Below, piece by piece: positions 4,347-33,039 of a stretch of DNA of 33,039 bases. Where the stretch lies: the NCBI GenBank assembly GCA_021849505.1, contig JAJZSW010000025.1, forward strand, positions 1 to 33,039. The letters run 5' to 3'. The notes under the pieces were generated by a model. The model was not told the origin of the DNA. It made no database searches and was given only the letters and a program-made list of their open reading frames with translations. Origin of the DNA: Pseudomonadota bacterium. Lineage in GTDB: Bacteria > Pseudomonadota > Gammaproteobacteria > Burkholderiales > Rhodocyclaceae. The position numbers and the translations under genes were made by a program. Positions within the stretch are counted from its first letter, which is position 1; each line of letters begins with the position of its first letter.

Positions 4347-5390
4347 TTGATCCAGCCCGGACTTGCCTGCGACATTTTCTGCGCCGTCATCGACAACCTC
4401 GGCGATGCGGGGGTCTGCTGGCGGCTGGCGCGGCAGCTGGCGGCCGAGCATGGCTGGCGCGTGCGGCTGTGGATCGACGATCCGGAGCCGGTCGCCCTGA
4501 TGGCGCCCGACCAGGCGGTTGTCGAAGTGCGCCGCTGGGCAGGCGATTTCGGCGGTATCGCGCCGGCCGATGTGGTGATCGAGGCCTTCGCCTGCGAACT
4601 GCCGCCGGCCTACGTCGCGGCGATGCGGGTCCGGCCGCGCCCGCCGGTCTGGCTCAACCTCGAATACCTGTCGGCCGAAGACTGGGTGCCCGGCTGCCAC
4701 GGCCTGCCCTCGCCCCATCCACCGCTGGCGAAATATTTCTTCTTTCCCGGCTTCGTGCCCGGCACGGGCGGACTGATCCGGGAGCGGGACCTTGCCGTCC
4801 TGCCAGCGCCGATTTTTACTGGTCCGATCGAGATTTCGCTGTTCTGTTACGCCAACCCGCAACTGCCCGCGCTGCTCGCGGCGTGGCGCGACGGCGGCCG
4901 GCCGATCACCTGCCATGTCTGCGCCGGCCTGCCGGGGCGGCAGGTGGCAGCGTGGCTCGGCACGGACTTTGCGGCAGGCGCCACGGTACGGCGCGGCCAT
5001 CTGACGCTGCATGCCCTGCCCTTCCTGCCCCAGACCGGCTACGACGCCCTGCTCGCCCGCTGCCACCTGAATTTCGTGCGCGGCGAGGATTCCTTCGTGC
5101 GCGCCCAGTGGGCCGGACGGCCCTTCGTCTGGCAGGCTTATCCGCAGGCGGAGGACGCCCACTTCGCCAAACTGGACGCGTTTCTGGGACTCTACGCAAA
5201 AGTCAGCCCCGACGAGACGGCACTGCGGCGCTTTTTTCTGGCCTGGAACGGCAACGGCACCCTGAACTGGCCCGAGTTCGCCGCGCAATTGCCCGCGCTG
5301 ACCGCCGCCGCGCCCGGCTGGGCCCGGCAGATCGCCGCCCACGGCGACCTGGCGACAAATCTGGTCAGGTTCTGCCGGGAAAAGCTATAA
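4347..5390 (+). CDS. earP: EF-P arginine rhamnosyltransferase EarP
   Basis: A GT-B glycosyltransferase (DUF2331) of 347 residues that transfers rhamnose from dTDP-L-rhamnose to Arg32 of elongation factor P. The family hallmark near the N-terminus is [18 protein letters not shown] (D16, D20), and the C-terminal nucleotide-sugar site is [14 protein letters not shown] (E247, D248), followed by [16 protein letters not shown]. The start is most likely TTG 4347: an in-frame ATG further upstream (4236) lies deep inside the preceding gene. efp follows 35 bp downstream, the diagnostic arrangement. A copy of the dispersed 23-bp repeat lies at 4794-4816, giving [10 protein letters not shown] in the mid-protein. 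Confidence 0.92.
4794..4816 (+). repeat. Dispersed intragenic repeat, copy A (in earP)
   Basis: Matches the core GCCGTCCCGCCAGCGCCGAC plus TTT with two mismatches (C to T at 4801 and 4813). The flanking CTT before and TTACT after are partly shared with other copies. It is the most diverged of the five. Confidence 0.55.
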
Positions 5391-5425
5391 TCCGCGCCTT
5401 TTATTTTCCCCATCAGGCACCTGCT

Positions 5426-5986
5426 ATGAAAACCGCTCAGGAACTCCGCGCCGGCAACGTCGTCATGGTCGGCAACGATCCGCTCGTCGTCCAGAAAGCC
5501 GAATACAACAAGGGCGGCCGCAGCGCCGCCGTCGTCAAGTTCAAGTTCAAGAATCTGCTCACCGGCAACCCCTCCGAAGCCATCTACAAGGCCGACGACA
5601 AGTTCGAGCAGGTCATCCCCGAGCGCAAGGAATGCACCTATTCCTACTTCGCCGATCCGATGTACGTCTTCATGGACGACGAATATCACCAGTACGAAGT
5701 CGAGGCCGAGAACATGGCCGACGCCATCCCCTACATCGAGGACGGCATGCAGGTGGAAGTCGTGTTCTACGACGGCAAGGCGATTTCGGTCGAAATGCCC
5801 AACAGCGTCGTGCGCGAGGTGGAATACACCGAGCCGGCCGTCAAGGGCGACACCTCGGGCAAGGTGCTCAAGCCCGCCAGGATCAAGCCGAGCGGCATGG
5901 AAGTGATGGTGCCGATCTTCGTCGTCACCGGCGACAAGATCGAAATCGATACCCGCACCGGCGAGTACAAGAACCGCGTCAAGTAA
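5426..5986 (+). CDS. efp: Translation elongation factor P
   Basis: A 186-residue, full-length EF-P with three OB-like domains. It binds ribosomes stalled on polyproline and stimulates peptide-bond formation. The domain I loop reads NKGGRSAA with Arg at position 32, the rhamnosylation site used in EarP-type bacteria, instead of the lysine modified by EpmA. This agrees with earP directly upstream. The conserved C-terminal [18 protein letters not shown] is present. The gene ends convergently with nagZ, overlapping it by 8 bp (5979-5986). No strong Shine-Dalgarno is seen before the ATG. Confidence 0.97.
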
Positions 5987-6983
5987 GCAGCGTCTGACAA
6001 GCGGCCCGACCGGCGGCGCACAGCCGGTCGAGTTCCGCGAAAGCCGGCGCGGCTTGCGCCGGCAGCAGCGCCGCGACGCGGTCGCTGCGCTCAGGAAGCT
6101 GTTCCGGCTTCCAGTTCTCCAATAACTCCACCACCGTTTCCGGCTTGTTGCACACTGGCAGCATGTCGCAGCCGGCGTCCCAGGCCGCCTGCGCGCGGCC
6201 GACGATGTCGCCCGCGACGCTGGCGCCCTCCATCGAAAGGTCGTCGCTGAAGATCACGCCGGCGTGGCCGAATTCGTGGCGCAGCCTGTCGATCCAGACC
6301 GGCGAGAAGCCCGCCGGCCGGCTGTCGACCTGCGGAAAGATCACATGCGCGGGCATCACCGCATCGAGCTTCAGCTTCCGATAAGGCAGCAGGTCATCGG
6401 CCATTGCAGCGAGGTTGCGTTCGTCGACCGGGATCGCCAGGTGCGAGTCGGCGGCGACGTGGCCATGTCCGGGGAAATGCTTGCCGCAGCAGGCCATGCC
6501 GGCGGCGTGCAAGCCGTCGATCAGCGCCCCGGCAAGTTGAACGACGGCCTGCGGATCGCGGTGGAAGGCCCGGTCGCCGATCACGCTGCTGACGCCGTAG
6601 TCGAGATCGAGCACCGGCGTGAAGGACAGGTCGACGCCGCAGGCGCGCAGTTCGGCGGCGAGCGTGAAGCCGATGGCGCGCGCGGCGGCGGTTGCGGCGG
6701 CCGGCGCGCGATCCCACCACTCGCCCAGCCGGCGCATCGCCGGGACACGCGTGAACCCCGCCCGGCAGCGCTGCACGCGGCCGCCTTCGTGGTCGATGGC
6801 GATCAGCAGTCGCGGTGTGCGCGCGGCGTGGATGTCAGCACACAGCGCGGCCAGTTGTGCCCGATCGGCATAGTTGCGCCCGAACAGGATCACGCCGCCG
6901 ACCAGCGGATGCCGCAGGCGTGCGCGCTCGGCGGCGGTCATCACCGTGCCGGCGACGTCGATCATCAGCGGGCCGTAACTCAT
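5979..6983 (-). CDS. nagZ: Beta-N-acetylhexosaminidase (peptidoglycan recycling)
   Basis: A 334-residue glycoside hydrolase family 3 enzyme that removes GlcNAc from GlcNAc-anhydroMurNAc muropeptides in the cytoplasm. The GH3 NagZ signature [14 protein letters not shown] (168-181) includes the His of the Asp-His dyad. The nucleophile region [10 protein letters not shown] (245-254) carries D247/D248. [10 protein letters not shown] (63-72) is the usual substrate-loop motif. The start at 6983 overlaps the acpS stop by 4 bp. No signal peptide is present, consistent with cytoplasmic recycling. It is last in the lepA-to-nagZ run. Confidence 0.96.
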
Positions 6984-7357
6984 GATCCCTCCACGACGAC
7001 AAAGGCCAGCGCGTGATCCTTTTCGTCGCTCAGCGACAGATGGCAGGTCAGCCCGCGTCGCCCGATCCAGTCGGCGAGTTCCGGGCCGAAGTCGAACGAC
7101 GGCTTGCCGAGTTCGTCGTGAGTCACCGCAATCGCCGGCAGCAGCACGGGCGCGCGGATGCCGGTACCGAGCGCCTTGCCGAGCGCCTCCTTGGCGGCAA
7201 ATCTTTTTGCCAGGAAACGGCCGGGGTCGCTGCTCGTGCGGCAGTCTTCGCGCTCTGCGGGCGCCAGCAGCTTCTCCAGCGCGCGTTCGCCGTGGCGCTG
7301 CCAGAACTCGTGCATGCGCGCGATGACGACGAGATCGGTGCCGATGCCGTGAATCAA
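6980..7357 (-). CDS. acpS: Holo-[acyl-carrier-protein] synthase
   Basis: A 125-residue AcpS-type phosphopantetheinyl transferase that moves 4'-phosphopantetheine from CoA to Ser of ACP. Magnesium-binding residues are visible as D8 in GIGTDLV and E57 in RFLAKRFAAKEALGKA. The C-terminal SLSDEKDHALAFVVVE is the standard strand pair. Length is normal. Downstream it overlaps nagZ by 4 bp, and it begins 2 bp after pdxJ, the pdxJ-acpS pairing typical of proteobacteria. Its substrate, acpP, is encoded about 14 kb away in this window. Confidence 0.96.
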   Translation of the reverse strand: MIHGIGTDLVVIARMHEFWQRHGERALEKLLAPAEREDCRTSSDPGRFLAKRFAAKEALGKALGTGIRAPVLLPAIAVTHDELGKPSFDFGPELADWIGRRGLTCHLSLSDEKDHALAFVVVEGS

Positions 7358-7359
7358 GG

Positions 7360-8103
7360 CTAGGCAACCTCGCGGATCAGCGCCTTCATCTCGCGCACCG
7401 CTTCACGCAGGCCGACGAAGATGGCGCGGCTGACGATGGCGTGGCCGATGTGCAGCTCGCAGACGCCCGGCAGGGCCGCGATCGGCTGCACATTGACGTA
7501 GTTGAGCGCGTGGCCGGCGTTGAAGCGCATGCCGAGCTGGCGGATTGCCGTCCCGCCAGCGCCGACTTTCGCGAGCTCGGCCTGCGCGGCGGCGCTTTCG
7601 ATGTCGCGGCCGTGCTCGTGGAAGGCATGGGCGTAAGGGCCGGTGTGGATCTCGCAGGCCTGCGCGCCGACGCGCGCGGCGGCCTCGATCTGGCGCGGAT
7701 CGGCGTCGATGAACAGGCTGACGTAGATGCCGGCGTCCCGCATGCGGGCGATGTTTTCCTTCAGGCGCGCTTCCTGCCCGGCCACGTCGAGGCCGCCTTC
7801 GGTGGTCACCTCGTGGCGGCCTTCCGGCACCAGCGTCGCCATCTCGGGCTTGATGCGGCAGGCGATGCCGACCATCTCGTCGGTGGCGCCCATTTCGAGG
7901 TTCAGCTTGGTCTGCACGCTCTGCCGCAGCAGCTCGACGTCGCGGTCGACGATGTGGCGGCGGTCCTCGCGCAGATGCACGGTGATTGCGTCCGCGCCGC
8001 CGAGATGCGCCTCGGCGGCCGCCCAGAGCGGGTCGGGTTCGTAGGTGCGGCGCGCCTGGCGCAGCGTCGCCACGTGGTCGATATTCACTCCCAGATAGAT
8101 CAT
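7360..8103 (-). CDS. pdxJ: Pyridoxine 5'-phosphate synthase
   Basis: A 247-residue TIM-barrel enzyme that condenses 1-deoxyxylulose 5-phosphate with 3-amino-2-oxopropyl phosphate to make pyridoxine 5'-phosphate. Family motifs: [15 protein letters not shown] at the N-terminus, [31 protein letters not shown], and the phosphate-site [17 protein letters not shown]. The start at 8103 has GGAG 9 bases upstream; an in-frame ATG at 8118 would add five residues. A perfect antisense copy of the dispersed repeat (7547-7569) encodes KVGAGGTA around residues 179-186, next to the conserved NAGH, where I would expect a helical stretch in homologues. Confidence 0.96.
7547..7569 (+). repeat. Dispersed intragenic repeat, copy B (antisense in pdxJ)
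   Basis: An exact copy of GCCGTCCCGCCAGCGCCGAC followed by TTT, on the strand opposite to pdxJ. Relative to its host gene it is inverted compared with the copies in earP, rseA, the rsmI-like gene and rne. That argues against a shared protein motif as the cause of the similarity. Confidence 0.75.
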
Positions 8104-8118
8104 TATCAATTGCTCCAC

Positions 8119-8835
8119 TCAGACATCTTGTAGTTCGATGAACACCCGGCGGGTCTGCAAGGGCTGGCCCGCGAGGTAATGGTTCAGAAGGTAGCGCATC
8201 AGCTGCTTGCCTTCGGCCAGGCTGCGCGCATCGGCGTAATTATCCCCCGCCAGGTCGAGCAAGGTCTTGCCGCTGACCGCCTGCCCGGATTCGGTTGTGT
8301 CGGCAGCGACCGCGCCACGTTCGACCTGGTAACGGTAGCTGCGCCCGGCTTCGACCGGCAGGCCCTGCGCATCGCGCTCGAGCACCAGTCCGTAGCCCAG
8401 TTCGCGCAGGAGCGTCTTCTCGAAGCGGCGCAGTTCGGCAGTCTCGGTCGCGCCGCGCGACAGGGCTGCCAGCGCGCTGGCATAGGCATCGAACAGCACG
8501 GCATGCGCATCCTCGCGCGGCAGCAGTTTGAGCAGCAGTTCGTTCAGGTAATAGCCGAGCAGCAGGCCCTCGCCACGGAGCAATGAAATGCCGCCCAGCC
8601 ATTCAGCCTTCGCCAGCGTCTTGACCTCGCCGCCGCCGAACCAGCCCAGTTCGAGCGGCTGGAAGGCATGCAGGACGCCGCGCAGCGCCGACCGCGGCCG
8701 CCGCGCGCCGCGCGCCAGCACGGCCAGCCGGCCATGTTCGCGCGCGAAGACTTCGAGGATCAGGCTGGTTTCGCTGTAGGGATAGGCATGCAGCAGGTAG
8801 GCCGCCGCCCCGTCGATGCGCTGATGCCGGCTCAC
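8119..8835 (-). CDS. recO: DNA repair protein RecO
   Basis: A 238-residue RecO that loads RecA on SSB-coated DNA together with RecR and anneals complementary strands. The N-terminal OB-fold is seen in AYLLHAYPYSETSLILEVFA and GRLAVLARGARRPRSALRG. The helical C-terminal domain contains FEKTLLRELGYGL, the strongest family motif, and the terminal RYLLNHYLAGQPLQTRRVF. The cysteine zinc site seen in some RecO proteins is absent, as in most proteobacteria. The start overlaps the end of era by 4 bp, and pdxJ follows after a short gap, the canonical era-recO-pdxJ order. Confidence 0.95.
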   Translation of the reverse strand: MSRHQRIDGAAAYLLHAYPYSETSLILEVFAREHGRLAVLARGARRPRSALRGVLHAFQPLELGWFGGGEVKTLAKAEWLGGISLLRGEGLLLGYYLNELLLKLLPREDAHAVLFDAYASALAALSRGATETAELRRFEKTLLRELGYGLVLERDAQGLPVEAGRSYRYQVERGAVAADTTESGQAVSGKTLLDLAGDNYADARSLAEGKQLMRYLLNHYLAGQPLQTRRVFIELQDV

Positions 8836-9725
8836 TCGTAACCCAGGGATTTCAGTGCACGCTCGTCGTCGGCCCAGCCGCTTTTCACCTTGACCCAGGT
8901 TTCCAGCCAGACCTTGCCGCCGAAGAGTTTTTCCATGTCCTTGCGCGCGTCGCTCACCACCCGCTTCAGGCGTTCGCCGCCCTTGCCGATGACGATGGCC
9001 TTGTGTGCGTCCCGGTCGACGATCACCGCCGCATGGATGCGCCGCACGCCCTCCACTTCTTCGTATTTCTCGATCTCGACGGCGATGCCGTAGGGCAGTT
9101 CCTCGCCGAGATTGCGGAACAGCTTTTCGCGCAGCAGTTCGGCGGCGAGGAAGCGTTCGGAACGATCGGTCAGCTCGTCCGGCTCGAAGATCGGCGGCGC
9201 CTCGGGCAGATATTTCCCGGCCACCTTGAGCAGGGTATCGAGGTTTTCGCCCTTTTCGGCGCTGACCGGCACGATGTCGGCGAAGGCATGCTCGTTCGCG
9301 ATCGCAGCCATGAGCGGCAGCAAGGCATTCTTGTCGGTCAGGCGGTCGACCTTGTTGATCACCAGCACGATCGGTCGGTCGCTCGGCAACCGCGCCAGAA
9401 CTTCGCGATCCTCGCTGCGCCAGCGCTTGGCATCGATGACGAACAGGATCACATCGACTTCGGCCAGTGCGGAATTGACCGTGCGGTTCATCGCGCGGTT
9501 GAGCGCCGTGCGGTGCTGCATCTGGACGCCCGGCGTATCGACGAAGACATACTGGCAGTCATCGGTCGTCAGGATGCCGTGGATGCGATGCCGCGTCGTC
9601 TGCGCCTTGCTCGATGTGATGCTGAGCTTCGCGCCAATCAGGCGGTTCATCAGCGTCGACTTGCCGACGTTCGGGCAGCCGACGATGGCCAGATAACCGG
9701 CGCGGAATTCTGAAGACCTGGTCAT
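8832..9725 (-). CDS. era: Ribosome assembly GTPase Era
   Basis: A 297-residue Era: an N-terminal GTPase domain with G1 GCPNVGKST (16-24), G3 DTPGV and G4 NKVD, and a C-terminal KH domain ([12 protein letters not shown]) that binds the 3' end of 16S rRNA. It acts in 30S maturation at the inner face of the membrane. The start at 9725 forms an ATGA overlap with the rnc stop (9722-9724); an in-frame upstream extension inside rnc was rejected because it has no family similarity. The rnc-era-recO order is conserved. Confidence 0.97.
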
Positions 9726-10396
9726 GAACTGGACAACCTTGCCAAGGCGGATTGCGCTGCTTCCTGCTCGGCGGCACGACGACTGCCGCCCCGGCCCGTC
9801 ACCTGCAGGTCGATGGCCGGAATGCTGCAATGGACGACGAATTCCTGCGCATGGGCTTCGCCAAGCGTCTCCATCAATTCGTAATGCGGCAGCGGGAGGC
9901 GGCGGCCCTGCAGCCATTCCTGCAGGGCGGTCTTGGCATCCTTGCCGGTATGGCGCGGGTCGATCAGCTCGATGCGGGACTGGTAGAGCCGTTCGATGGC
10001 GGTTCGCGCGGCCTCGAAACCGGCATCCAGATAGACTGCTCCCAAGATGGCTTCCAGCGCATCGGCGAGGATCGACGGACGCCGGAATCCGCCGCTTTTC
10101 AGTTCGCCCTCGCCGAGGCGCAGGGCATCGCCCAAGCCAAGCTCGGCGGCGATTTCGGCCAGGGCTTCCTGGCGCACCAGGTTGGCGCGCAGGCGCGAAA
10201 GCTCGCCTTCCTTGAGGTTGGGAAACTGCTGGAACAGCAGTGTCGCGACGGTGCAGTTCAGCACGCTGTCGCCGAGAAACTCGAGCCGTTCGTTGTGCGG
10301 GGATGAGTGGCTGCGATGCGTCAGCGCCTGCCGCAGCAGTTCAGGCTGCCTGAAGCTGTACGCGAGCGCCTTCTCCAGCCGCGAGGACAAAATCAA
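9722..10396 (-). CDS. rnc: Ribonuclease III
   Basis: A 224-residue RNase III that cuts double-stranded RNA, including the 30S rRNA precursor. The signature [13 protein letters not shown] (34-46) carries the catalytic acidic residues, the second metal-binding set is in [14 protein letters not shown], and a dsRNA-binding domain fills the C-terminus ([11 protein letters not shown] to [14 protein letters not shown]). The start is TTG at 10396, overlapping the TGA of the upstream DUF4845 gene (TTGA), so translation is probably coupled and limited. This fits an enzyme usually kept at low level. Confidence 0.96.
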
Positions 10397-10758
10397 TCCC
10401 TGGAGGATCCCGTGAAGTCGAGAATCAGGCTGACATTCGCGAACAGGGGGATGCGTTTTTCGTAGGAGTAGGCCACCACGATCGCGCCGCCCTCCTTGGT
10501 GACCTCGAGGTCGGCGCCGGTGATGGCCGAGATGTAGTCGACGTTGGCCTGGCGGTCGAAGGCTTCGCGGACCTGCCTGACGGAAGATTCCGGCGCGGCG
10601 CCCGCTGCGACCTTCAGGACCGCGCTGGCGATCGCACGATGTTCCATGTATTCGGGGAAGACCTTCATGCCCAGGAGGGCAACAACCGCCACCACGAAGG
10701 CTCCGGCCAGCAGACCGGAAAGGGTTACGCCACGCTGTCTTGCCTTCATCCCATGCAC
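10393..10758 (-). CDS. DUF4845 membrane protein (pilin-like N-terminus)
   Basis: A 121-residue protein with a short basic N-terminus, one transmembrane helix (about residues 12-30, [20 protein letters not shown]) and a periplasmic domain. The arrangement [11 protein letters not shown] resembles a type IV pilin-like leader but lacks the usual F-T-L-E glutamate. It belongs to the DUF4845 family, regularly found between lepB and rnc in betaproteobacteria. Function is unknown. An alternative ATG three codons in (10749) is possible; 10758 is kept for the GAGG just upstream. It begins 4 bp after lepB. Confidence 0.85.
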
Positions 10759-10762
10759 CTCG

Positions 10763-11551: not shown

Positions 11552-11553
11552 GA

Positions 11554-13347
<1,794 letters not shown>

Positions 13348-16529: not shown

Positions 16530-17074
16530 GGGCGGATGTGTTCCAGCGCGACGGTCCGGATTTGCTTGGTGCTGTCGCCCAGCCGGATCGTGGCTGCCTG
16601 GGCATGATGCGCCAGCAGGTATTCGCTCAAATCGGCTGCCATGGGAGCCTGAGTCGCTTGAGAAAAAGTCGGCGCTGGCGGGGCGGCACTTGCCGCGGCT
16701 GCGGCCCGGTCTTTTTGCGTCATGGCCAGGTGCTGCCAAGCTGCCTGCCCCTGCGGATCGCCAGTGAGGGCAACCCAGCCGACGACCGCCACGCCGGCGA
16801 CGGAGGCGGCAAGCGCCAGCAGCGGATGATGACGCGGCCTTGCCTTCAGATTGCGTGGCGCCAGCACGACGGGCTCCTCGGCGAGGCGAGCCATGACGCC
16901 GGCGGTCAGGTCCGGCAGATCGACGTTCTCGCCTCGGAGTCCATCGCCGATCAGGCCGTACGCGCGCCAGCGCTCCTGATCCGCAAGGCTCGCCTTGAGC
17001 GCGGCGCGCAACTCGTGATCTTCCAGTTCCCCGTCGAACAGGGCGGAAATTTCCGACGATCGTTCAGCTTTCAT
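16526..17074 (-). CDS. rseA: Anti-sigma-E factor RseA/MucA
   Basis: A 182-residue single-pass inner-membrane protein. The N-terminal cytoplasmic domain (ISALFDGELEDHELRAAL, 9-26) binds RpoE, the transmembrane helix is about 84-103 (PLLALAASVAGVAVVGWVAL), and the periplasmic tail would be cut by DegS and RseP. The start at 17074 has GGAG 6 bases upstream. The tail holds an Ala/Pro linker PPAPTFSQATQ encoded by a copy of the dispersed repeat (16665-16687). The C-terminus ends TVALEHIRP without the Val-rich terminus seen in E. coli RseA. Confidence 0.9.
   Translation of the reverse strand: MKAERSSEISALFDGELEDHELRAALKASLADQERWRAYGLIGDGLRGENVDLPDLTAGVMARLAEEPVVLAPRNLKARPRHHPLLALAASVAGVAVVGWVALTGDPQGQAAWQHLAMTQKDRAAAAASAAPPAPTFSQATQAPMAADLSEYLLAHHAQAATIRLGDSTKQIRTVALEHIRP
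16665..16687 (-). repeat. Dispersed intragenic repeat, copy C (in rseA)
   Basis: On the minus strand, the core GCCGTCCCGCCAGCGCCGAC plus TTT with one change (T to C at the fifth base). The upstream AAGT, also present in the copy in the rsmI-like gene, suggests that the element extends to AAGTGCCG at its 5' side. Confidence 0.7.
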
Positions 17075-23090: not shown

Positions 23091-24059
23091 TTACAAAGTG
23101 ACCAGGGCAGCGCCCCAGGTGAAGCCGCCACCGACACCCTCGAGCAGTGCCGTCTCGCCAGCGCGGAGTTGGCCCGACCGCACCGCTTCGTCGAAGGCCA
23201 GCGGAATCGAGGCCGCTGATGTGTTGCCATGGCGATCGACGGTGACGACGACCTTTTCAGGCGGCAGATGCAATTTCTTGGCCGTCGATTGCATGATGCG
23301 AATGTTGGCTTGATGGGGGATCAGCCAGTCAATCTGCTCCTTGGTCATGCCGGCTGCCGCGATGACCTCTTCGGCCACCTCGGCGAGTACCTTGACGGCG
23401 AACTTGAACACCGCCTGGCCGTCCATGCGCAGCAAGGGGTCGCCGATCGGCTGGCCGCCGCAAACGTGGCCGGGCACGGCAAGAATGTCGCGATGCCGTC
23501 CGTCGGCATGCAGCGCGGTTGCATGGATGCCCGGCGTCTCGGAGGCTTCCAGCACGATGGCGCCCGCGCCGTCGCCGAACAGCACGCAGGTACCGCGATC
23601 CTGCCAGTCGAGGATGCGCGAGAACACTTCCGACCCGACGACCAGCGCACGTTTGTGCGAGCCGGAACGGATGAACTTGTCGGCGGTCGCCAGCGCATAG
23701 ATGAAACCGCTGCAGACCGCCTGCAGGTCGAAAGCCGCGCCGCCGTTGGTGATGCCCAGCTTGTCCTGCAGGATCGTCGCGGTGCTCGGGAAGACGAAGT
23801 CCGGCGTCGAGGTCGCCAGCACGATCAGGTCGATGTCGTTCGGCTGCCGGCCGGCAGCTTCGAGGGCACGCCGGCAGGCCACCAGCGCGAGGTCGCTCGC
23901 GGCGACTCCGGCCGGCGCCAGATGGCGCGTGCGGATGCCGGTACGCTCGACGATCCATTCGTCCGAGGAATCGAGCCCCTTGTCCGCGATCAGCGCGGTG
24001 TTATCGACGGGATCGCCGGGGAGATAGCTGCCGGTACCGGTGATGCGGGAATGGATCAT
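23091..24059 (-). CDS. fabH: 3-oxoacyl-ACP synthase III
   Basis: A 322-residue initiating ketosynthase that condenses acetyl-CoA with malonyl-ACP. The triad is C116 ([12 protein letters not shown]), His in [12 protein letters not shown] and Asn in [11 protein letters not shown]. The start at ATG 24059 gives [14 protein letters not shown], the usual FabH N-terminus, rather than the in-frame ATG 24080. It lies 11 bp after plsX and starts the fatty-acid synthesis segment of the operon. Confidence 0.97.
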
Positions 24060-25147: not shown

Positions 25148-25175
25148 ACGGCCGGACGTTCGCACGTCCGGCCGT
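25148..25175 (-). other. Perfect hairpin between rpmF and plsX (possible attenuator)
   Basis: A 12-bp perfect inverted repeat, ACGGCCGGACGT and its complement, with a 4-base loop. On the minus strand it is followed by TTTCATTAT, too poor in T for a strong terminator. It lies between the rpmF stop and the plsX start, so it may reduce read-through or protect the rpmF message. Confidence 0.6.
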
Positions 25176-25191
25176 GTCGGGTGAAACCGGA

Positions 25192-25371
25192 TCACTCACC
25201 CTTGGTCTTGATGACCTTCTTGCCGCGATAGACGCCGGACGGGGAAATGTGGTGGCGCAGATGCACCTCGCCCGTGGTCGGCTCGATGGCCAGCGGCGGG
25301 GCGCTGAGGAAATCGTGGGCGCGATGCATGCCGCGCTTGGACGGGGACTTTTTGTTTTGCTGGACAGCCAT
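25192..25371 (-). CDS. rpmF: 50S ribosomal protein L32
   Basis: A 59-residue basic protein. It begins [20 protein letters not shown] and ends [14 protein letters not shown], the standard L32 pattern. It has no cysteines, so it is the zinc-free form. The start at 25371 has GAAGGAGTC (AAGGAG) upstream. It sits 26 bp after yceD and before plsX, as in most proteobacteria. Confidence 0.97.
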
Positions 25372-25397
25372 GATGACTCCTTCTTGCCTAGATCAAT

Positions 25398-25955: not shown

Positions 25956-26027
25956 GCGCCGCCCTTTCCAGTCAAAGGTTTATTCGGGAAAAAAGCCTGA
26001 AAAAACATCCCATAACCATCTATTGCC

Positions 26028-26612: not shown

Positions 26613-26619
26613 ACCGACC

Positions 26620-27336
26620 ATGAGCGGGGCTCTCTACCTTCTGCCGACCCAGCTCGGCGAATCGGACTGGCCCTCCGTCCTGCCGACTGCGACCCGCGAC
26701 ACTGCCTGTCGCTTGCGCCACTTCATCGTCGAGAACGCCAAGACGGCCCGCGCTTCGCTGAAATGGCTGGGCCATCCCGTTCCGCTGCGCGAACTGGCAA
26801 TCGAACAGTTGCCGGAAGCGCTGAAACCGCAGGATATCGAGCGCTTGCTGGCGCCCTTGCTGGCCGGCGAGGATGGCGGCCTGATGTCGGAAGCCGGCTG
26901 TCCCGGCGTCGCCGATCCCGGCGCCCTGCTCGTCCGCCGCGCCCATGAACTCGGCATCCCGGTCAAACCGCTGGTCGGTCCCTCCTCACTGCTGCTGGCG
27001 CTGATGGCCTCGGGGCTCGACGGCCAGCGCTTTGCCTTCCACGGCTACCTGCCGCAGCGCGAACCGGAGCGTTCGAAGCGCATCATCGAACTGGAGAAGG
27101 AATCGCGCCAGAAGCGGCAGACCCAGCTGTTCATCGAGACGCCCTACCGCAACGAGGCGCTGTTCGAAGCCCTGCTCAAGGCCTGCCAGCCGGACACGCG
27201 GCTGTGCGTCGCCACCGAACTGACACTGCCCGGCGAAAGCATCGCGACACGACGCGTCGCCGACTGGAAGTGCCGTCCCGCCAACGCCGACTTTGCGCGG
27301 CGTCCGACGGTCTTTCTTTTGCTCAGCGAACGCTGA
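26620..27336 (+). CDS. RsmI-like SAM-dependent methyltransferase (tetrapyrrole methylase fold)
   Basis: A 238-residue protein of the RsmI/CbiF fold. It has an N-terminal LYLLPTQLGE, the helix VENAKTARASLKWLG replacing the EDTR motif of true RsmI, the cofactor loop GLMSEAGCPGVADPG, and LVGPSSLLLALMASG. It is a short paralogue often encoded next to maf in betaproteobacteria; whether it 2'-O-methylates C1402 like RsmI is unknown. A copy of the dispersed repeat (27272-27294) encodes RPANADF near the C-terminus. Its last 14 bp overlap the end of sppA on the opposite strand. Confidence 0.88.
   Translation: MSGALYLLPTQLGESDWPSVLPTATRDTACRLRHFIVENAKTARASLKWLGHPVPLRELAIEQLPEALKPQDIERLLAPLLAGEDGGLMSEAGCPGVADPGALLVRRAHELGIPVKPLVGPSSLLLALMASGLDGQRFAFHGYLPQREPERSKRIIELEKESRQKRQTQLFIETPYRNEALFEALLKACQPDTRLCVATELTLPGESIATRRVADWKCRPANADFARRPTVFLLLSER
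27272..27294 (+). repeat. Dispersed intragenic repeat, copy D (in the rsmI-like gene)
   Basis: The core GCCGTCCCGCCAGCGCCGAC plus TTT with one change (G to A at 27284). It is preceded by TGGAAGT, part of which is shared with the rseA copy. It is read in a different frame from the earP, rseA and rne copies (RPANADF instead of PAPTF). Confidence 0.7.
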
Positions 27337-28267
27337 ACTGCGTCAAGGCATTGGCCAGGCCGGCGGCCGCATCGGCACCGAACCGGCGCGCGAATTTCTC
27401 GGCGAAGTTCGGCTTGACTGTGTAGTCGCGGATTTCTTCGGCCTTGATGACGTCGCGAGCGACCGAGTCCACCGTGCCGTACGCATCCGCCAGGCCCAGC
27501 TCGATGCTCCTGGCACCCGTCCACATCAATCCGGAAAACATCTCCGGCGTTTCCTTCAGTCGCGTACCGCGCCCCTTGCGCACCACGTCGATGAACTGCC
27601 GGTGGATATCGTCGAGCATGCCCTGGGCATGCGTCTTGTGGCGTTCGTTCTGCGGCGAGAACGGATCGAGGAAGCCCTTGTTCTCGCCGGCCGTCAGCAG
27701 GCGCCGCTCGATGCCGAGCTTGTCCATGCTGCCGGTGAAGCCGAAGCCGTCCATCAGCACCCCGATCGAGCCGATGATGCTGGCCTTGTCGACAAAAATC
27801 TTGTCGGCGGCCGCGGCGACATAGTAGCCGCCTGACGCGCAGACATCCTCGACCACGACGTAGAGCGGCTTGGCGGCGTGCTTGGCGCGCAGGCGGCCGA
27901 TCTCGTCAGCGATGATGCCGGCCTGCACCGGGCTGCCGCCGGGACTGTTGATGCGCAGGATCACGCCGGCCGCGCCCTTGTCGTCGAAGGCGGCCTGCAG
28001 TGCGCTGACGACGTCGTCGGCGTTCGCGTCGCCCTTGGCCTGGATCACGCCGGTCAGTTCGACCAGCGCGGCGTGGTGCTGCTGCTGTTCAGGACTCATG
28101 GTGTTCCAATCGACCAAGGTCAACAGCACGACCGTCAGGTACGCAAAGCCGAGCAGTTTGAAGAAAATGCCCCAGCGCCGCGTGCGCCGCTGCTCGGCGA
28201 CTGAGGCCAGCGCCACCTTTTCCAGTACCTTGCGTTCCCAGTTGCCGTCTTCCGCCACGTCAATCAC
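27323..28267 (-). CDS. sppA: Signal peptide peptidase SppA, 36K type
   Basis: A 314-residue S49 peptidase that degrades cleaved signal peptides at the periplasmic face of the inner membrane. One transmembrane helix (about 33-52) follows a cytoplasmic NWERKVLEKVALASVAEQRR. The Ser-Lys dyad is S145 in DVCASGGYYVAAAADKI and K197 in TAGENKGFLDPFSP. INSPGGSP is the substrate loop. The start is taken as GTG 28267, overlapping the Rieske gene stop; GTG 28258 is possible. It ends convergent with the rsmI-like gene. Confidence 0.94.
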   Translation of the reverse strand: MIDVAEDGNWERKVLEKVALASVAEQRRTRRWGIFFKLLGFAYLTVVLLTLVDWNTMSPEQQQHHAALVELTGVIQAKGDANADDVVSALQAAFDDKGAAGVILRINSPGGSPVQAGIIADEIGRLRAKHAAKPLYVVVEDVCASGGYYVAAAADKIFVDKASIIGSIGVLMDGFGFTGSMDKLGIERRLLTAGENKGFLDPFSPQNERHKTHAQGMLDDIHRQFIDVVRKGRGTRLKETPEMFSGLMWTGARSIELGLADAYGTVDSVARDVIKAEEIRDYTVKPNFAEKFARRFGADAAAGLANALTQFSVR

Positions 28268-28613
28268 CTTCCTGAATCAGAAATACTTCGCCATTTTCCT
28301 CGACCATCCGCAACGCATCCAGCCCGCGGCCGTTGCAGCGTCCGCCAAGGCAGGCGCCAGTGGCGGGATCGAAGAGCGCGCCATGCGTGGCGCAGATCAA
28401 GTATAGCCCGCTGACATCGAAGAACTCACCCGGTTTCCAGTCCAGTTCCATGGGCGTGTGCCCGCAACGATTGAGGTAGGCACGCGCCTCTCCCCGGAAA
28501 CGCACGACGAAGGCCGGCGCCGCATCCGCGCCGGAACCGGTCTCGAAGCGCACACCGCGCCCTCCTTCCGCCAGCTCGGCGCTGGCGCAGATCAGGCGTT
28601 TGCTCTCAGCCAT
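28260..28613 (-). CDS. Rieske [2Fe-2S] domain protein
   Basis: A 117-residue single-domain Rieske ferredoxin-like protein. The cluster ligands are C50-x-H52 (NRCGHTPMEL) and C74-x2-H77 (ICATHGALF). No membrane anchor or catalytic domain is present, so it is an electron carrier or regulatory protein of unknown partner. It overlaps gph by 22 bp and sppA by 8 bp, so translation of the three is probably coupled. The start at 28613 is chosen because the in-frame upstream sequence, inside gph, has no Rieske similarity. Confidence 0.92.
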   Translation of the reverse strand: MAESKRLICASAELAEGGRGVRFETGSGADAAPAFVVRFRGEARAYLNRCGHTPMELDWKPGEFFDVSGLYLICATHGALFDPATGACLGGRCNGRGLDALRMVEENGEVFLIQEGD

Positions 28614-29245
28614 GCCTGCAGGTCGGCGACCGAATCCGCGCAATAGCGGTAATTCACTTCCGCAAGGCCGGTGCGCGGGTGGGCGCCGTAGCTGACAGCG
28701 ACGGCATCGACCCCGGCATTGCGGGCCATCAGCAAGTCGTGCGTCGTGTCGCCGATCATCAGAGTCTGCTCCGGCGCGACGGCAAGTTCGTCCATCAGCT
28801 CCTCGATCATCTGCGGATGCGGTTTCGAATGGCACTCGTCGGCACAGCGGGTGCCATGGAAGAAAGTGCCGAGTCCGCTATGCGCGAGCGCGCGGTCCAG
28901 CCCCTTGCGCGACTTGCCGGTCGCCACGCCCAGCCGGAAGCCGTGCTCCGCCAGTTCGCGGACCAGCGCAGCGGCGCCGGCGAACAGGGTCAGCTGGTGA
29001 TCCCGCGACAGGTAGTGATGGCGATAGCGCTCCACCAGCTCGGGATAATGATCCTCGGGCAGGTCTGGCAAGGCATGGCGCAGGGCATCGCCCAATCCCA
29101 GTCCGATGATGTGGCGGGCGCGCTCTTCCGGGGGCGGCTCCAGCCCGAGATCGCGCGCGGCGGACTGCACGCTGTCGACGATCATCGCCGCCGAGTCCAT
29201 CAGCGTGCCGTCCCAGTCGAACACGATCAGCTCATAGCGTTTCAT
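28592..29245 (-). CDS. gph: HAD-superfamily phosphatase, phosphoglycolate phosphatase-like
   Basis: A 217-residue HAD hydrolase. Motif I is FDWDGTLMDS (nucleophile D10, acid D12), motif II is in LGVATGKSRKG, motif III Lys is in HSKPHPQMI, and motif IV is MIGDTTHDLLMA. The cap is the small helical C1 type of Gph/YjjG-like enzymes. In betaproteobacteria the gene beside rluC is usually annotated as phosphoglycolate phosphatase; the substrate is not proven by sequence. Its start overlaps the rluC end by 14 bp. Confidence 0.88.
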   Translation of the reverse strand: MKRYELIVFDWDGTLMDSAAMIVDSVQSAARDLGLEPPPEERARHIIGLGLGDALRHALPDLPEDHYPELVERYRHHYLSRDHQLTLFAGAAALVRELAEHGFRLGVATGKSRKGLDRALAHSGLGTFFHGTRCADECHSKPHPQMIEELMDELAVAPEQTLMIGDTTHDLLMARNAGVDAVAVSYGAHPRTGLAEVNYRYCADSVADLQAWLRANA

Positions 29246-30191
29246 TTGCAGTTTCGAGTTTATTCAGGAATTTTTGCAGTTCGGGCGGCAACGGCGCTGC
29301 GAGGTGCAGTTTTTCCCCGGACAGCGGGTGCGGCAGGCGCAGCACTGCCGCGTGGAGGAACATGCGTTTCACCCCGGCCTTTTGCAAGTCCCGGTTGAGC
29401 GCGAAATCCCCATATTTCTCGTCGCCCAGGATCGGGAAGCCCAGATGCGCCAGATGCACGCGGATCTGGTGGGTGCGGCCGGTGCGCAGTTCCACTTCCA
29501 GAAGGCTGAATTCGCCCAAGGGATGCTTCCAGCGTCCTTTCAGGCGCATGATCGAGTGCGCTTCCTTGCCCTCAGGGTCCACCCTAACGCGGCGTTCTCC
29601 CTCGGCCGACATGTATTTATGAAGCGGCAGCTTGACGTTGCGCAGTTTGTCCCGCCAGTGTCCCTTGACCAGCGCGAGGTAGCGCTTGTCGATGCCGCCG
29701 TCGCGGAACAGGTCATGGAGCTTGGTCAGCGCCGACCGCTTCTTGCCGATCAGCAGCAGGCCGGAGGTATCCCGGTCGAGCCGGTGGGCCAGTTCGAGGA
29801 ACCTCGCCTGCGGCCGCGCCTTGCGGAGCTGCTCGATCACACCGAAATCGACTCCGCTGCCGCCATGCACCGCGACGCCGGCCGGCTTGTCGATGACGAT
29901 CATGGCCTCGTCCTCGAAGACGACGGCGAAATCGCGGGCCGGCACCGCCGCCACGTCTTTCGGTTCGGCCAGGCGGATCGGCGGCAAGCGCACCCGGTCG
30001 CCGAGCTCCAGCCGCCGGTCGGCAGTCGACCTTCCCTTGTTCACCCGCACCTCGCCGCTGCGCAGGATGCGATAGACGTGGCTTTTCGGGACCCCCCTCA
30101 GAACTTTCAGCAGGTAGTTGTCGATCCGTTGCCCGGCGCCATCCTCGCCAACCTCAAGAAAGGTGGCGGATTCTTTACTCAAGTCTTTCAT
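29232..30191 (-). CDS. rluC: 23S rRNA pseudouridine synthase RluC
   Basis: A 319-residue RluA-family enzyme that makes pseudouridine at 23S positions 955, 2504 and 2580 in E. coli. The N-terminal S4 domain is RIDNYLLKVLRGVPKSHVYR (22-41). The catalytic Asp is D139 in HRLDRDTSG, and the C-terminal RTGRTHQIRVHLAHLGFPI and GDEKYG are motifs II and III. The start is taken as ATG 30191; TTG 30197 is also in frame. It is divergent from rne, the arrangement seen in E. coli as well. Confidence 0.94.
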   Translation of the reverse strand: MKDLSKESATFLEVGEDGAGQRIDNYLLKVLRGVPKSHVYRILRSGEVRVNKGRSTADRRLELGDRVRLPPIRLAEPKDVAAVPARDFAVVFEDEAMIVIDKPAGVAVHGGSGVDFGVIEQLRKARPQARFLELAHRLDRDTSGLLLIGKKRSALTKLHDLFRDGGIDKRYLALVKGHWRDKLRNVKLPLHKYMSAEGERRVRVDPEGKEAHSIMRLKGRWKHPLGEFSLLEVELRTGRTHQIRVHLAHLGFPILGDEKYGDFALNRDLQKAGVKRMFLHAAVLRLPHPLSGEKLHLAAPLPPELQKFLNKLETANETL

Positions 30192-30203
30192 TTCCAATAT
30201 AAT
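30174..30203 (+). promoter_or_regulatory. rne: Probable sigma-70 promoter of rne
   Basis: TTTACT (30174-30179) and a perfect TATAAT (30198-30203) are separated by 18 bp on the plus strand. The -10 lies just upstream of the rluC start on the other strand, so the rne promoter overlaps the 5' end of rluC. Transcription would begin near 30210, giving a leader of about 325 bases. Confidence 0.6.
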
Positions 30204-30535
30204 GATCGTGCTCAGCCGTCTCCGTGCGGCGTGCCCGACATTCCGAAGTGGTGCCGGGGCGTCCTGCCGATGCGACTGCAGCCCAAGGGTAGATCGCCCG
30301 CCTGAAGCAGCGATACTACTATCGTCTCAAGACATTTTTTCGCGCACAAGACAGGCTTCGATACGCGCTGCCGCTTTGCATCGGCAGCGCATCCGACAAA
30401 TTTTCTAACCCATTTGCCCTTTCCCTCATCCCACCCCGATGATCCAGATCCCGCAAATCCGTTAAGCGCCGCCAATTCAAAGCGGCGTGATTTGTCGTGC
30501 CTTCCTGCCTGCCCAAGTGCGCACCGGGAGCACAC
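30204..30535 (+). promoter_or_regulatory. Long structured 5' leader of rne
   Basis: About 330 bases with no gene I can support. It holds a stem GCGCTGCCG/CGGCAGCGC with an 8-base loop (30365-30390) and a second stem CGCCGC/GCGGCG with a 9-base loop (30467-30487), then GGGAG (30526-30530) 5 bases before the rne ATG. In E. coli the 361-base rne leader carries stem-loops through which RNase E controls its own mRNA decay. By position and form this leader could do the same. Confidence 0.55.
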
Positions 30536-33039
30536 ATGAAACGCATGCTGTTCAATGCGACGCAAGCCGAGGAACTCCGCGTCGCGATCGTCGATGGTCA
30601 GAAACTGATCGACCTCGACATCGAATCGGCCGCAAAAGAGCAACGCAAGAGCAATATCTACAAGGCAGTCATCACCCGCATCGAGCCCAGCCTCGAAGCC
30701 GCGTTCGTCGATTACGGCGCCGAGCGTCACGGCTTCCTGCCCTTCAAGGAAGTCTCACGCAGCTACTTCCTGCCTGATGTCGAACCCGGCCGCGCCCGCA
30801 TCCAGGACGCGCTGAAGGTTGGCCAGGAACTGATCGTCCAGGTGGAGAAAGACGAGCGGGGCAACAAGGGCGCGGCGCTGACCACCTACATCTCACTGGC
30901 CGGCCGCTACCTCGTGCTGATGCCGAACAACCCGCGCGGCGGCGGCGTCTCGCGCCGCATCGAGGGCGAGGACCGCCAGGAACTACGCGAGGTGATGGAC
31001 CAGCTCGAAGTGCCCAACGGGATGAGCCTGATCGCCCGCACCGCCGGCATCGGCCGCAGCGCCGAGGAACTGCAGTGGGACCTCAATTACCTGCTGCAGC
31101 TCTGGGGGGCCATCGACGGCGCCGCCAAGGCACAAACCGGCGCCTTCCTGATCTACCAGGAATCGAGCCTCGTCATCCGCGCCATCCGCGACTACTTCCA
31201 GCCCGAGATCGGCGAGATCCTCATCGACACCGACGACATCTTCGAGCAGGCCCAGCAGTTCATGGCGCACGTGATGCCGGGCAACGTCGCCCGCGTGAAG
31301 CGTTACCGCGACGACGTGCCGCTGTTCTCGCGCTTCCAGATCGAACACCAGATCGAGTCCGCCTACTCGCGGCAGGTCAATCTGCCCTCCGGCGGCGCGG
31401 TCGTCATCGACCATACCGAAGCGCTGGTCTCCATCGACGTCAACTCCGGCCGCGCCACCAAGGGCGCCGACATCGAGGAAACCGCCTTCCGCACCAACTG
31501 CGAGGCGGCTGACGAAATCGCCCGCCAATTGCGCCTGCGCGACCTCGGCGGCCTGATCGTCATCGACTTCATCGACATGGAATCGGCGAAGAACCAGCGC
31601 GAAGTCGAAAACCGCCTGCGCGACGCCCTGCACTTCGACCGTGCCCGCGTCCAGACCAGCAAGATCTCTCGCTTCGGCCTGCTCGAACTGTCCCGCCAGC
31701 GCCTGCGCCCCGCACTCGCCGAGGCCAGCTACATCACCTGCCCGCGCTGCACCGGCACCGGCCACATCCGCAGCACCGAATCCGCCGCCCTACACATCCT
31801 GCGCATCCTCGAAGAAGAGGCGATGAAGGAGAACACCGGCGCGCTTCACGTGCAGGTGCCCGTCGATGTCGGTACCTTCCTGCTCAACGAAAAACGCGTG
31901 GATATTGCCCGCATCGAGATGCGCCACCGCGTCAATCTGCTGATCATCCCGAACCGCCACCTCGAGACGCCCCAGCACGAAATCATCCGCCTGCGTCACG
32001 ACCAGCTCAACCAGGAAGGCGTCGTGCTCGCCAGCTACGAGATGGCCGTCAAACCCGCCGAGGAGGAATCCGCCATGGCCGCCGGCGAGAGTCGGGCGCC
32101 GCGCGCCGAAGCCGCCGTCAAGGGCATCACGCCCGATCAGCCCGCCCCCATCGTCGCTCCCAGCGAACCTGAAGCGCCCGCCCCCGCGCCGGGTTTCTTC
32201 GCCCGCATCCTGTCCTGGCTGACCGGCGGCGGAAAGAAGGAAGAAGCCGTCGCGGAAGCGCCGAAGAAATCCGAGCGCCCGGGTCGCCGGGATCGTGCCG
32301 AGCGCGGCGAAGGTGGCGAGCGCGGTGACCGCGGTGGCCGTGGCCGGCGCGAAGGTCGCGACCGCAATGAGCGCGGCGATCGTCCCGAGCGTGGCGAACG
32401 CAAGGACCGCACCGAGCGCGCCGAGGGCGGGAAGGAACAGCGCGAAGGCCGTCAGAACCGTCCCGAGCGTGGCGAGCGCCCCGAACGCGGCGAACGCAAG
32501 GAACGTGCCGAGCGTGCCGAAGGCAGCAAGGAGCAGCGCGAAGTTCGCCAGAGCCGCCAGAAACCCGCTGCCGATACCGAGGCCCCGGCCATCATGGGTG
32601 CCGCACCGGGCGAAGGCAATGCGCCCGAGGCGGGTTCCGAAGGCGGCCGGCGGCGAGGCCGGCGTGGCGGCCGCAACCGCGGCGAACGTCAGGTCGAGGA
32701 AGTTGCCGCCGCCGTCGCTGCCATCGCCGTGCCGGTTGCAGCGGAGGCCTCAGCCAGCATTGAACCCGCAGCTGCCGCACCGGTAGAAACAATCCCGGTC
32801 GCTGAGTCTGCTGTTGCCGTCCCGCCAGCGCCGACTTTCAGCGAGCCCGCCGTCGAGCCTGTCGTGGAGGTCGTGCCGGCCGCACCTGCACCTGTAATGG
32901 CTGCCGAACCCGTCGCTGCCGAGCCCGTCATCGCGAATGAACCGGTCGCCGCAATCGAAGTCGCACCGGAGCCCGTGCCTGTTCCGGCGAACATCCCGGC
33001 GACGATCACTGCGCCGGCAGAGCCGATCGATCTCTCGAG
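30536..33039 (+). CDS. rne: Ribonuclease E (partial, cut by the window end)
   Basis: The first 834 residues of RNase E. The catalytic half is intact: S1 domain (about 35-120, with AFVDYGAERHGFLPF), 5'-sensor region, DNase I-like domain with metal-binding D301 (VSIDVNSGR) and D344 (IVIDFIDM), and the Zn-link C402-P-R-C405. From about residue 525 the C-terminal scaffold is disordered: a short amphipathic segment FFARILSWL (a possible membrane anchor), an Arg/Glu-rich block with a 96-bp tandem repeat, and a Pro/Ala/Val-rich tail containing a copy of the dispersed repeat. The stop is beyond the window. Confidence 0.97.
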   Translation, partial: MKRMLFNATQAEELRVAIVDGQKLIDLDIESAAKEQRKSNIYKAVITRIEPSLEAAFVDYGAERHGFLPFKEVSRSYFLPDVEPGRARIQDALKVGQELIVQVEKDERGNKGAALTTYISLAGRYLVLMPNNPRGGGVSRRIEGEDRQELREVMDQLEVPNGMSLIARTAGIGRSAEELQWDLNYLLQLWGAIDGAAKAQTGAFLIYQESSLVIRAIRDYFQPEIGEILIDTDDIFEQAQQFMAHVMPGNVARVKRYRDDVPLFSRFQIEHQIESAYSRQVNLPSGGAVVIDHTEALVSIDVNSGRATKGADIEETAFRTNCEAADEIARQLRLRDLGGLIVIDFIDMESAKNQREVENRLRDALHFDRARVQTSKISRFGLLELSRQRLRPALAEASYITCPRCTGTGHIRSTESAALHILRILEEEAMKENTGALHVQVPVDVGTFLLNEKRVDIARIEMRHRVNLLIIPNRHLETPQHEIIRLRHDQLNQEGVVLASYEMAVKPAEEESAMAAGESRAPRAEAAVKGITPDQPAPIVAPSEPEAPAPAPGFFARILSWLTGGGKKEEAVAEAPKKSERPGRRDRAERGEGGERGDRGGRGRREGRDRNERGDRPERGERKDRTERAEGGKEQREGRQNRPERGERPERGERKERAERAEGSKEQREVRQSRQKPAADTEAPAIMGAAPGEGNAPEAGSEGGRRRGRRGGRNRGERQVEEVAAAVAAIAVPVAAEASASIEPAAAAPVETIPVAESAVAVPPAPTFSEPAVEPVVEVVPAAPAPVMAAEPVAAEPVIANEPVAAIEVAPEPVPVPANIPATITAPAEPIDLS
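32395..32560 (+). repeat. 96-bp imperfect tandem repeat in the rne scaffold region
   Basis: CGAACGCAAGGA starts at 32395 and again at 32491, followed in both by GAGCG(C/T)GCCGA, GCAAGGA-like and CAGCGCGAAG blocks. The 32-residue protein unit is ER(K)-x-R-x-ERAEG-x-KEQRE-x-RQ, with further half-units (PERGER) between. It lies in the Arg-rich RNA-binding part of RNase E, where repeat number probably varies between strains. Confidence 0.75.
32816..32838 (+). repeat. Dispersed intragenic repeat, copy E (in rne)
   Basis: An exact copy of GCCGTCCCGCCAGCGCCGAC followed by TTT. It encodes AVPPAPTF in the disordered tail, the same frame as the rseA copy. Identical at all 23 positions to the antisense copy in pdxJ, 25 kb away. 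Confidence 0.75.

What the first reader, a model, noticed from the sequence alone, without database searches (positions are those of the whole stretch)
4794..32838. A 23-bp repeat placed five times inside unrelated genes, in several frames
GCCGTCCCGCCAGCGCCGAC followed by TTT occurs at 4794, 7547, 16665 (minus), 27272 and 32816, with 2, 0, 1, 1 and 0 mismatches. All five are inside coding sequence and none is intergenic. The reading frame differs (PPAPTF, RPANADF) and in pdxJ it is antisense (VGAGGTA), so protein selection cannot explain it. Chance occurrence of two exact and three near-exact 23-mers in 33 kb is very unlikely even at this GC content. It resembles, in concept, the intragenic palindromic elements of Rickettsia.
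Basis: partly seen in the sequence, partly recalled or inferred. Interest (0 to 1): 0.8.

Follow-up and report, generated by a model that had tools for sequence, protein, structure and literature searches.

The report
Genome-wide DNA signal, probably for uptake
The repeat is one of hundreds of copies of a 25-letter DNA signal scattered over the genomes of some little-studied bacteria; it looks like the 'self' labels that two other bacterial families use when they take up DNA, which would make it a third such system.

Summary
The five copies are real and far beyond chance. They belong to a genome-wide, non-palindromic 25-bp repeat, TGCCGTCCCGCCAGCGCCGACTTTY: 512 copies at ≤3 mismatches in the 2.75-Mb own genome, 0 in the reversed control. 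Copies are not insertions. In pdxJ the motif replaces existing codons without a gap in 71 of 71 motif-less relatives. At 54 sites with a motif-less aligned partner, no closest partner is 21-27 nt shorter. Of 249 family genomes, 36 in nine of 68 genera carry 97 or more copies of the bipartite core, in dialects. 368 genomes of other families stay at control level. Forward copies of one closed genome show no replichore bias. Sites are enriched outside coding DNA, and inside genes prefer three of six frames. This matches the published profile of Neisseriaceae and Pasteurellaceae DNA uptake sequences. Best reading: a third, undescribed uptake-sequence system, accumulated by point mutation plus biased uptake. 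Against it: no canonical ComEA found in 17 of 19 motif bearers tested, no receptor found, no experiment. The Rickettsia-type insertion analogy is rejected.

The parts
4793..4817 (+). copy 1 of the 25-bp motif, in earP (EF-P rhamnosyltransferase), read as AVLPAPIF
   Evidence: 2 mismatches to the 23-mer; 38 bits; host Pfam EarP
7546..7570 (+). copy 2, antisense inside pdxJ, read there as KVGAGGTA
   Evidence: exact; 42 bits; ungapped in 71 of 71 motif-less relatives
16664..16688 (-). copy 3, in the C-terminal part of rseA, read as AAPPAPTF
   Evidence: 1 mismatch; 37 bits; host Pfam RseA_N
27271..27295 (+). copy 4, near the C-terminus of a TP_methylase-family gene, read as CRPANADF
   Evidence: 1 mismatch; 36 bits; host Pfam TP_methylase
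32815..32839 (+). copy 5, in the Ala/Pro-rich tail of RNase E, read as AVPPAPTF
   Evidence: exact; 40 bits; host Pfam RNase_E_G
   Evidence: 33 bits; its CTGACTTT end is the form usual in genus g11
23148..23172 (+). weak match (4 mismatches), perhaps a decayed copy
   Evidence: 25.5 bits
24080..24104 (-). weak match (4 mismatches), perhaps a decayed copy
   Evidence: 25.8 bits
12520..12544 (+). partial match antisense in lepA, probably chance
   Evidence: 28 bits; 55 of 55 spanning motif-less homologues align without a gap there and the examples shown share [11 protein letters not shown]
28760..28784 (-). weak match (5 mismatches), doubtful
   Evidence: 21 bits

Best explanation
A DNA-uptake-signal system (it works like Neisseria DUS or Haemophilus USS) in a third family, the Rhodocyclaceae (family inferred from the record names). 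Shown: a sharply defined 25-bp bipartite motif, in hundreds of copies per genome and near-equal numbers in both orientations, that arises in place by substitution, sits preferentially outside genes or in three tolerable frames, and exists as dialects by genus or species group. Inferred: a surface receptor, most likely a type IV minor pilin, binds DNA carrying the motif. Such DNA is imported through ComEC and recombined into the chromosome. This spreads mutations towards the consensus and repairs decayed copies, so the motif accumulates by molecular drive and marks self DNA. When the receptor's preference drifts, the copies follow, giving a new dialect. When uptake is lost, the copies decay.
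For: 512 copies in G000 and 458 in closed G080, 0 in reversed controls. Graded mismatch classes 17/22/18/7/14/6 for 0-5 mismatches, control empty below 6. Substitution, not insertion. Forward copies of G080 split 54/46 between halves of the chromosome (p=0.42) and fit a uniform spread (KS p=0.53). About 31 bits of conservation (matrix built from sites picked by likeness, so somewhat inflated) against 13.5 bits needed to find 458 sites. Noncoding enrichment, and 74 of 87 coding copies in three of six frames. Two sites where about nine are expected in 40 kb of ribosomal-protein, rpo and tuf genes, a stretch picked afterwards as the emptiest. Dialects. Single species without the motif inside bearing genera: G247, G155, G084. 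ComEC in 35 of 35 genomes. [quoted passage not shown]
Against: Canonical ComEA (TIGR00426) is over its cut-off in 7 of 35 genomes, and in 2 of 19 motif bearers, both g64. PF12836 in 17 genomes gives 12 long Tex-like frames, one ComEA-sized frame (G148) and two hits below the cut-off (G019, G211). Four genomes gave nothing at all, not even the long frame, so this search can miss genes. ComEC is equally present in motif-less genomes. No receptor found: one pilin candidate fails, and the minor pilins of motif-less G247 are closer to G000's than G080's are (PilE-type 69.6 against 60.5%, FimT-type 62.5 against 38.0%). Density, about 170 per Mb in G080, is below the 300 per Mb that PMC12616744 used as a floor. 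No sites closer than 150 bp in G000, so no inverted pairs. No uptake data exist.
Confidence: 0.62

Rival explanations
1. A genome-wide binding site for an intracellular DNA-binding protein (nucleoid organiser, segregation, repair or occlusion factor), kept by selection at each site.
For: Sharp bipartite motif with two boxes ten bases apart; even spread of the forward copies; 31 of 85 aligned sites have the motif or a near form (up to 5 mismatches) in all their partners; ComEA mostly not found.
Against: About 31 bits conserved where 13.5 would do (matrix value somewhat inflated). No polarity or domain bias seen in forward copies. Few sites in a strongly conserved region. Nine of 68 sampled genera have it strongly, and single species inside a genus lack it, which is hard for a housekeeping factor.
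Confidence: 0.25
2. A mobile intragenic repeat (like Rickettsia palindromic elements, REP or MITE-like) that inserts into genes.
For: Many near-identical dispersed copies. Two of 54 sites have some partner 21-27 nt shorter, and among the five closest partners outside +-20 nt two are 43 and 45 nt shorter. 40 viral contigs carry an exact copy.
Against: 0 of 54 sites show +21 to +27 nt against the closest motif-less partner. The pdxJ copy is ungapped in 71 of 71 relatives. The consensus is not a palindrome. No full 23-mer among the best-ranked matches in 72,556 plasmid and 50,697 phage records.
Confidence: 0.03
3. A replication- or recombination-polarised signal (Chi-, KOPS- or matS-like).
For: High copy number.
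Against: Forward copies 54 against 46 between the two halves of closed genome G080, and uniform; 25 bp is far longer than Chi or KOPS (recalled).
Confidence: 0.03
4. A transfer signal for another import or packaging route (conjugation-like, gene transfer agent, vesicle uptake) that works by the same biased-recombination drive but not through type IV pili.
For: The drive-like features hold, while ComEA is mostly not found.
Against: I know of no such route with a 25-bp chromosomal repeat (recalled; not searched for here).
Confidence: 0.07

Closest known systems
Neisseriaceae DNA uptake sequence (DUS, ATGCCGTCTGAA) and its eight dialects, receptor ComP
   Same: Very many copies, dialects around a fixed core that follow phylogeny, restricted within a family, some members without it. 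TGCCGTC and CTGA also occur in forms of the present motif (a lead only).
   Different: 25 bp and bipartite instead of 10-12 bp; about 170 per Mb; no close inverted pairs in G000; no receptor identified and ComEA mostly not found; another family.
Pasteurellaceae uptake signal sequence (USS, AAAGTGCGGT; second dialect ACAAGCGGTC), predicted receptor PpdA/ComN
   Same: More than one dialect, evolution by point mutation. The reverse complement ACCGCACTTT resembles ...CCGACTTT (a lead only).
   Different: Different sequence and length; host of 63% GC; beta- rather than gammaproteobacterial lineage (recalled).
Rickettsia palindromic elements (RPE; recalled, no paper seen)
   Same: Repeats inside unrelated genes, in more than one frame.
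   Different: Those are about 100-150-bp insertions that add peptides to proteins (recalled). These are 25-bp, non-palindromic and replace existing codons.

Membership tests
DNA uptake sequences (DUS/USS) | strong genome-wide over-representation of a short non-palindromic motif | tested here: met
   512 copies against 0 in control; 458 in closed G080
DNA uptake sequences (DUS/USS) | copies arise by point mutation, not by insertion | tested here: met
   many partners only 60-80% alike, and several of the 54 sites are homologous to each other
[quoted passage not shown]
   54 of 100 forward copies in one half, KS p=0.53; reverse copies not listed; origin and terminus placed by noisy GC skew
DNA uptake sequences (DUS/USS) | preference for noncoding or unconstrained coding DNA | tested here: met
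   87 of 153 coding against 453 of 600 random positions; three frames hold 74 of 87 (ad hoc classifier); emptiest stretch is ribosomal-protein and rpo genes
DNA uptake sequences (DUS/USS) | dialects that follow phylogeny inside a family | tested here: inconclusive
   dialects shown for eleven genomes and restriction to one family; that they follow phylogeny was not tested with a family tree, and G249 (inferred g1) differs from other g1 genomes
DNA uptake sequences (DUS/USS) | competence machinery present | tested here: inconclusive
   ComEC 35 of 35; pilin-type genes in 3 of 3 genomes; ComEA over cut-off in 2 of 19 motif bearers; DprA not tested
DNA uptake sequences (DUS/USS) | sequence-specific receptor (ComP or PpdA/ComN-type minor pilin) | tested here: inconclusive
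   one pilin candidate does not track the motif; minor-pilin comparison does not separate bearers from G247
DNA uptake sequences (DUS/USS) | motif increases DNA uptake or transformation | not testable with these tools
   needs a culture
Rickettsia palindromic elements | in-frame insertion that lengthens the host protein | tested here: not met
Rickettsia palindromic elements | palindrome | tested here: not met
   the consensus is not its own reverse complement (seen in the sequence)
Chi/KOPS-type polar signals | strand bias with replication | tested here: not met
   (forward copies of one genome only)

The most novel reading that the evidence does not exclude
A third family-level DNA uptake-sequence system in bacteria, outside the Neisseriaceae and Pasteurellaceae. 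It has a long bipartite 25-bp signal, at least six distinguishable dialects, an unidentified receptor and perhaps no canonical ComEA in most bearers. It gives an independent test of whether self-recognition in transformation evolves by molecular drive and receptor drift.
Probability: 0.55. Interest if true: 0.88.

Novelty: new variant of a known kind. Interest (0 to 1): 0.74.

Why it matters
In the papers seen here, genome-wide uptake signals are described for two bacterial families, and why they exist (mate recognition or by-product of a biased receptor) is still argued. A third case, with several dialects, near relatives that lack it and species without it inside bearing genera, lets drive, receptor co-evolution and loss be compared directly. 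It would also predict natural transformation in these Rhodocyclaceae (the nine bearers named are all metagenome-assembled), and gives a DNA 'watermark' for tracing gene transfer between them.

Tried and rejected
Insertion element: rejected. The first DNA comparison was noisy because of balanced 1-nt gaps (333 of 601 pairs showed some gap in the motif +-5 nt) and was replaced by the net-length test.

Receptor candidate: an MSHA-like pilin (label recalled) with 91% identity between G000 and G080 over the mature part (89%). In one search it had matches in 172 of 249 genomes and did not track the motif: G187, with 717 copies, had no match; G066 had 66% identity with 1 copy at ≤3 mismatches (12 of the core). 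Minor-pilin cluster (PilE/FimT/PilV/PilW-type, names recalled): motif-less G247 is closer to G000 than G080 is.

Low-GC motif desert as a genomic island: it is the ribosomal/rpo/tuf region. Viral contigs: 40 contigs with 42 exact matches in the IMG/VR collection. Extra sites there run at 7.6 per 100 kb against 19.3 in the host sample, but they are conditioned on a hit, so this is not used as evidence. The first two Tex-type trees (Tex named by recall) contained wrong-strand ORFs; one search is the valid one. Terminator role: no close pairs in G000; in the G080 sample the only close copies are three in one orientation 54 bp apart.

Literature: the listings of searches (0 to 20 rows shown each, of up to 358 papers) show no paper that ties uptake sequences to Rhodocyclaceae. 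One search found no paper holding both terms, and the 20 of 34 papers listed concern other subjects by title. Subscription papers are not held. In PMC2843746 a word search for uptake, competence, DUS and three genus or family names found nothing.
Full report
Observation. The five 23-mers are at the stated places with 2, 0, 1, 1 and 0 mismatches, and none is expected in shuffles. Their hosts are EarP, PdxJ (antisense), RseA, a TP_methylase protein and RNase E. In the own genome (G000, 2,749,208 bases, 161 contigs) there are 512 copies at up to 3 mismatches, 239 forward and 273 reverse, and none for the pattern read backwards.

Anatomy. In 391 kb of G000 (the window plus the stretches), 64 copies have at most 3 mismatches. 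The 61 with full flanks define a 25-bp unit, T GCCGTC(C/T)(C/T)GCCAGCGCCGACTTT (C/T), with sharp edges. Mismatch classes 0-5 hold 17, 22, 18, 7, 14 and 6 copies; the control has none below 6. A weight matrix finds 88 sites over 18 bits against 0 in reversed sequence. The window has five further matches over 18 bits. The one at 5198-5222 (minus) is a convincing degenerate copy, while 12520-12544 lies on conserved LepA residues and is probably chance.

Distribution. A pdxJ search in named genomes returned 'Rhodocyclaceae bacterium' assemblies such as UBA2250 as the nearest relatives, from which I infer the family. In 249 genomes of the family, own genome included, 114 have at least one match and 28 carry 200 or more copies of this dialect: 8 of 9 in the own genus g1, 7 of 8 in g2, 1 of 1 in g9, 1 of 1 in g38, 4 of 4 in g46 and 7 of 7 in g64. 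The bipartite core GCCGY-N10-YYGACTTT adds g11 (6 of 7, 380-492 copies), g45 (119) and g23 (97 in one of two genomes), and weakly g66 (62 and 38 in two of six); the remaining genomes have at most 20. In 368 genomes of other families of the class the maximum is 3 for the full motif and 6 for the core, where the reversed control reaches 9. In the 80 pdxJ loci (1.28 Mb, 3 to 21 kb each) there are 24 core matches and 0 control matches: 22 in L051-L058 and L074, one each in L061 (Azonexus) and L111 (Propionivibrio), none in the others, which include Dechloromonas, Azospira, Azoarcus, Thauera, Accumulibacter and Methyloversatilis. The best-ranked plasmid and phage matches fall short of the full 23-mer; 40 viral contigs hold an exact copy.

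Dialects. Per-position tables for eleven genomes show steady differences. G000 and G080 have TGCCGT...GCGCCGACTTT. UBA2250 (G249) has CGCCGC and GA(G/C)TTT, which the listing shows as well. G008 has mostly CCAGCACCGACTTTT. G045 has (A/G)CCGT...AGCGTCGACTTTT. The two g11 genomes have CGCCGT...CTGACTTT with a variable spacer. G148 (g64) has TC(A/G)CCAGCGCCGACTTT. G038, G046 and G069 differ from G000 chiefly by C before GCCGT. Common to all are box A, YGCCG(T/C), and box B, YYGA(C/G)TTT, ten bases apart; G045 often has A for the first G.

Origin by substitution. In PdxJ the species with exact or one-mismatch copies read KVGAGGTA or KVGAAGTA where most relatives read K(I/V)-x-x-AG-x-A, with no gap in 71 of 71 motif-less homologues. 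Of 292 queried sites in motif-bearing genomes, 85 align across genomes and 54 have a motif-less partner (6 or more mismatches). The closest partner's net length difference is 0 in 17, up to 9 nt in 23, 10-20 nt in 9 and other in 5 (+43, +45, -23, -30, -60). None is +21 to +27, though 2 of 54 have some partner in that range. Several of these sites are homologous, and many partners are only 60-80% alike, so 54 is not 54 clean independent events. The EarP copy lies in a gap-rich loop (15 of 17 homologues gapped) and says nothing.

Placement. In the closed genome G080 the 100 listed forward copies at ≤1 mismatch split 54/46 between the two halves suggested by a noisy GC skew and fit a uniform spread; reverse copies were not listed. 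By an ad hoc codon-usage classifier on G000 and G080 samples, 87 of 153 sites are coding against 453 of 600 random positions (Fisher p about 1e-5). 74 of 87 coding copies use the frames [16 protein letters not shown] and CRPASADF, while [15 protein letters not shown] and PSRQRRL hold 13. The emptiest 40 kb of the sample, with rpoA, secY, ribosomal proteins, two EF-Tu genes and RpoC, holds two sites where about nine are expected. No two of the 88 G000 sites lie within 150 bp.

Reading. Conservation of about 31 bits (somewhat inflated, since the matrix gathers sites by likeness) exceeds the 13.5 bits needed to find 458 sites in G080. With origin by point mutation, graded mismatch classes, no polarity in the copies tested, avoidance of coding DNA and dialects, this is the published profile of uptake sequences (PMC1939737 and PMC3630211, passages only; PMC2346458, the first of three parts). 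A 2025 paper predicts a minor pilin as the Pasteurellaceae receptor (PMC12616744, passages). The mechanism proposed is biased uptake plus recombination; receptor and uptake are inferred, not shown.

Against. ComEC is present in open frames in 35 of 35 genomes, with or without the motif. ComEA by TIGR00426 passes its cut-off in 7 of 35, and in 2 of 19 motif bearers, both g64. PF12836 in 17 genomes gives 12 long Tex-like frames, one ComEA-sized frame in G148 and two hits under the cut-off (G019, G211). G187, G069, G010 and G023 gave no match at all, so the search can miss genes (Tex named by recall). The minor pilins of motif-less G247 are closer to G000's than those of motif-bearing G080 are. 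An intracellular binding site remains the main rival.

Losses. G247 (same GTDB genus) has 0 copies genome-wide at ≤3 mismatches and nothing over 11 bits in 102 kb. In a one-gene tree it has a very long branch, and if the other genera are taken as outgroup it falls among g1 genomes (single gene, placement unsure). G155 in g11 and G084 in g23 also lack the motif (G084 is 79% complete).

Counts were recounted. Mended: the number of dialects (six, not seven), the rating of 'dialects follow phylogeny' (now inconclusive), the ComEA statement, and the viral matches. None of these asks for other odds.

Noticed in passing
G083:C1 1,461,266-1,502,266; G262:C148; G257:C35; G056:C104: In genomes with few copies, these often cluster within tens of kilobases, as if DNA had been transferred from motif-bearing donors: a possible natural watermark of gene transfer.
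   Followed up: no
G247 (same GTDB genus): Motif-free, with a very long branch in a Tex-type protein tree: perhaps a lineage that lost DNA uptake and evolves fast.
   Followed up: partly
L135 positions 879-2242: A viral contig carries five motif copies in one orientation, 316 to 385 bp apart, perhaps in a repeated gene or element.
   Followed up: no
window 32369-32556: Two 92-bp direct repeats (82% alike), 96 bp start to start, in the charged part of the RNase E gene.
   Followed up: no
Rhodocyclaceae genomes: Canonical ComEA was over the cut-off in only 7 of 35 genomes although ComEC was found in 35 of 35, so any competence here may use another periplasmic DNA receptor.
   Followed up: partly
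motif consensus: The motif contains TGCCGTC (as in the Neisseria DUS) and, in genus g11, CTGACTTT; its end CCGACTTT resembles the reverse complement of the Haemophilus USS. Shared ancestry or coincidence; untested.
   Followed up: no
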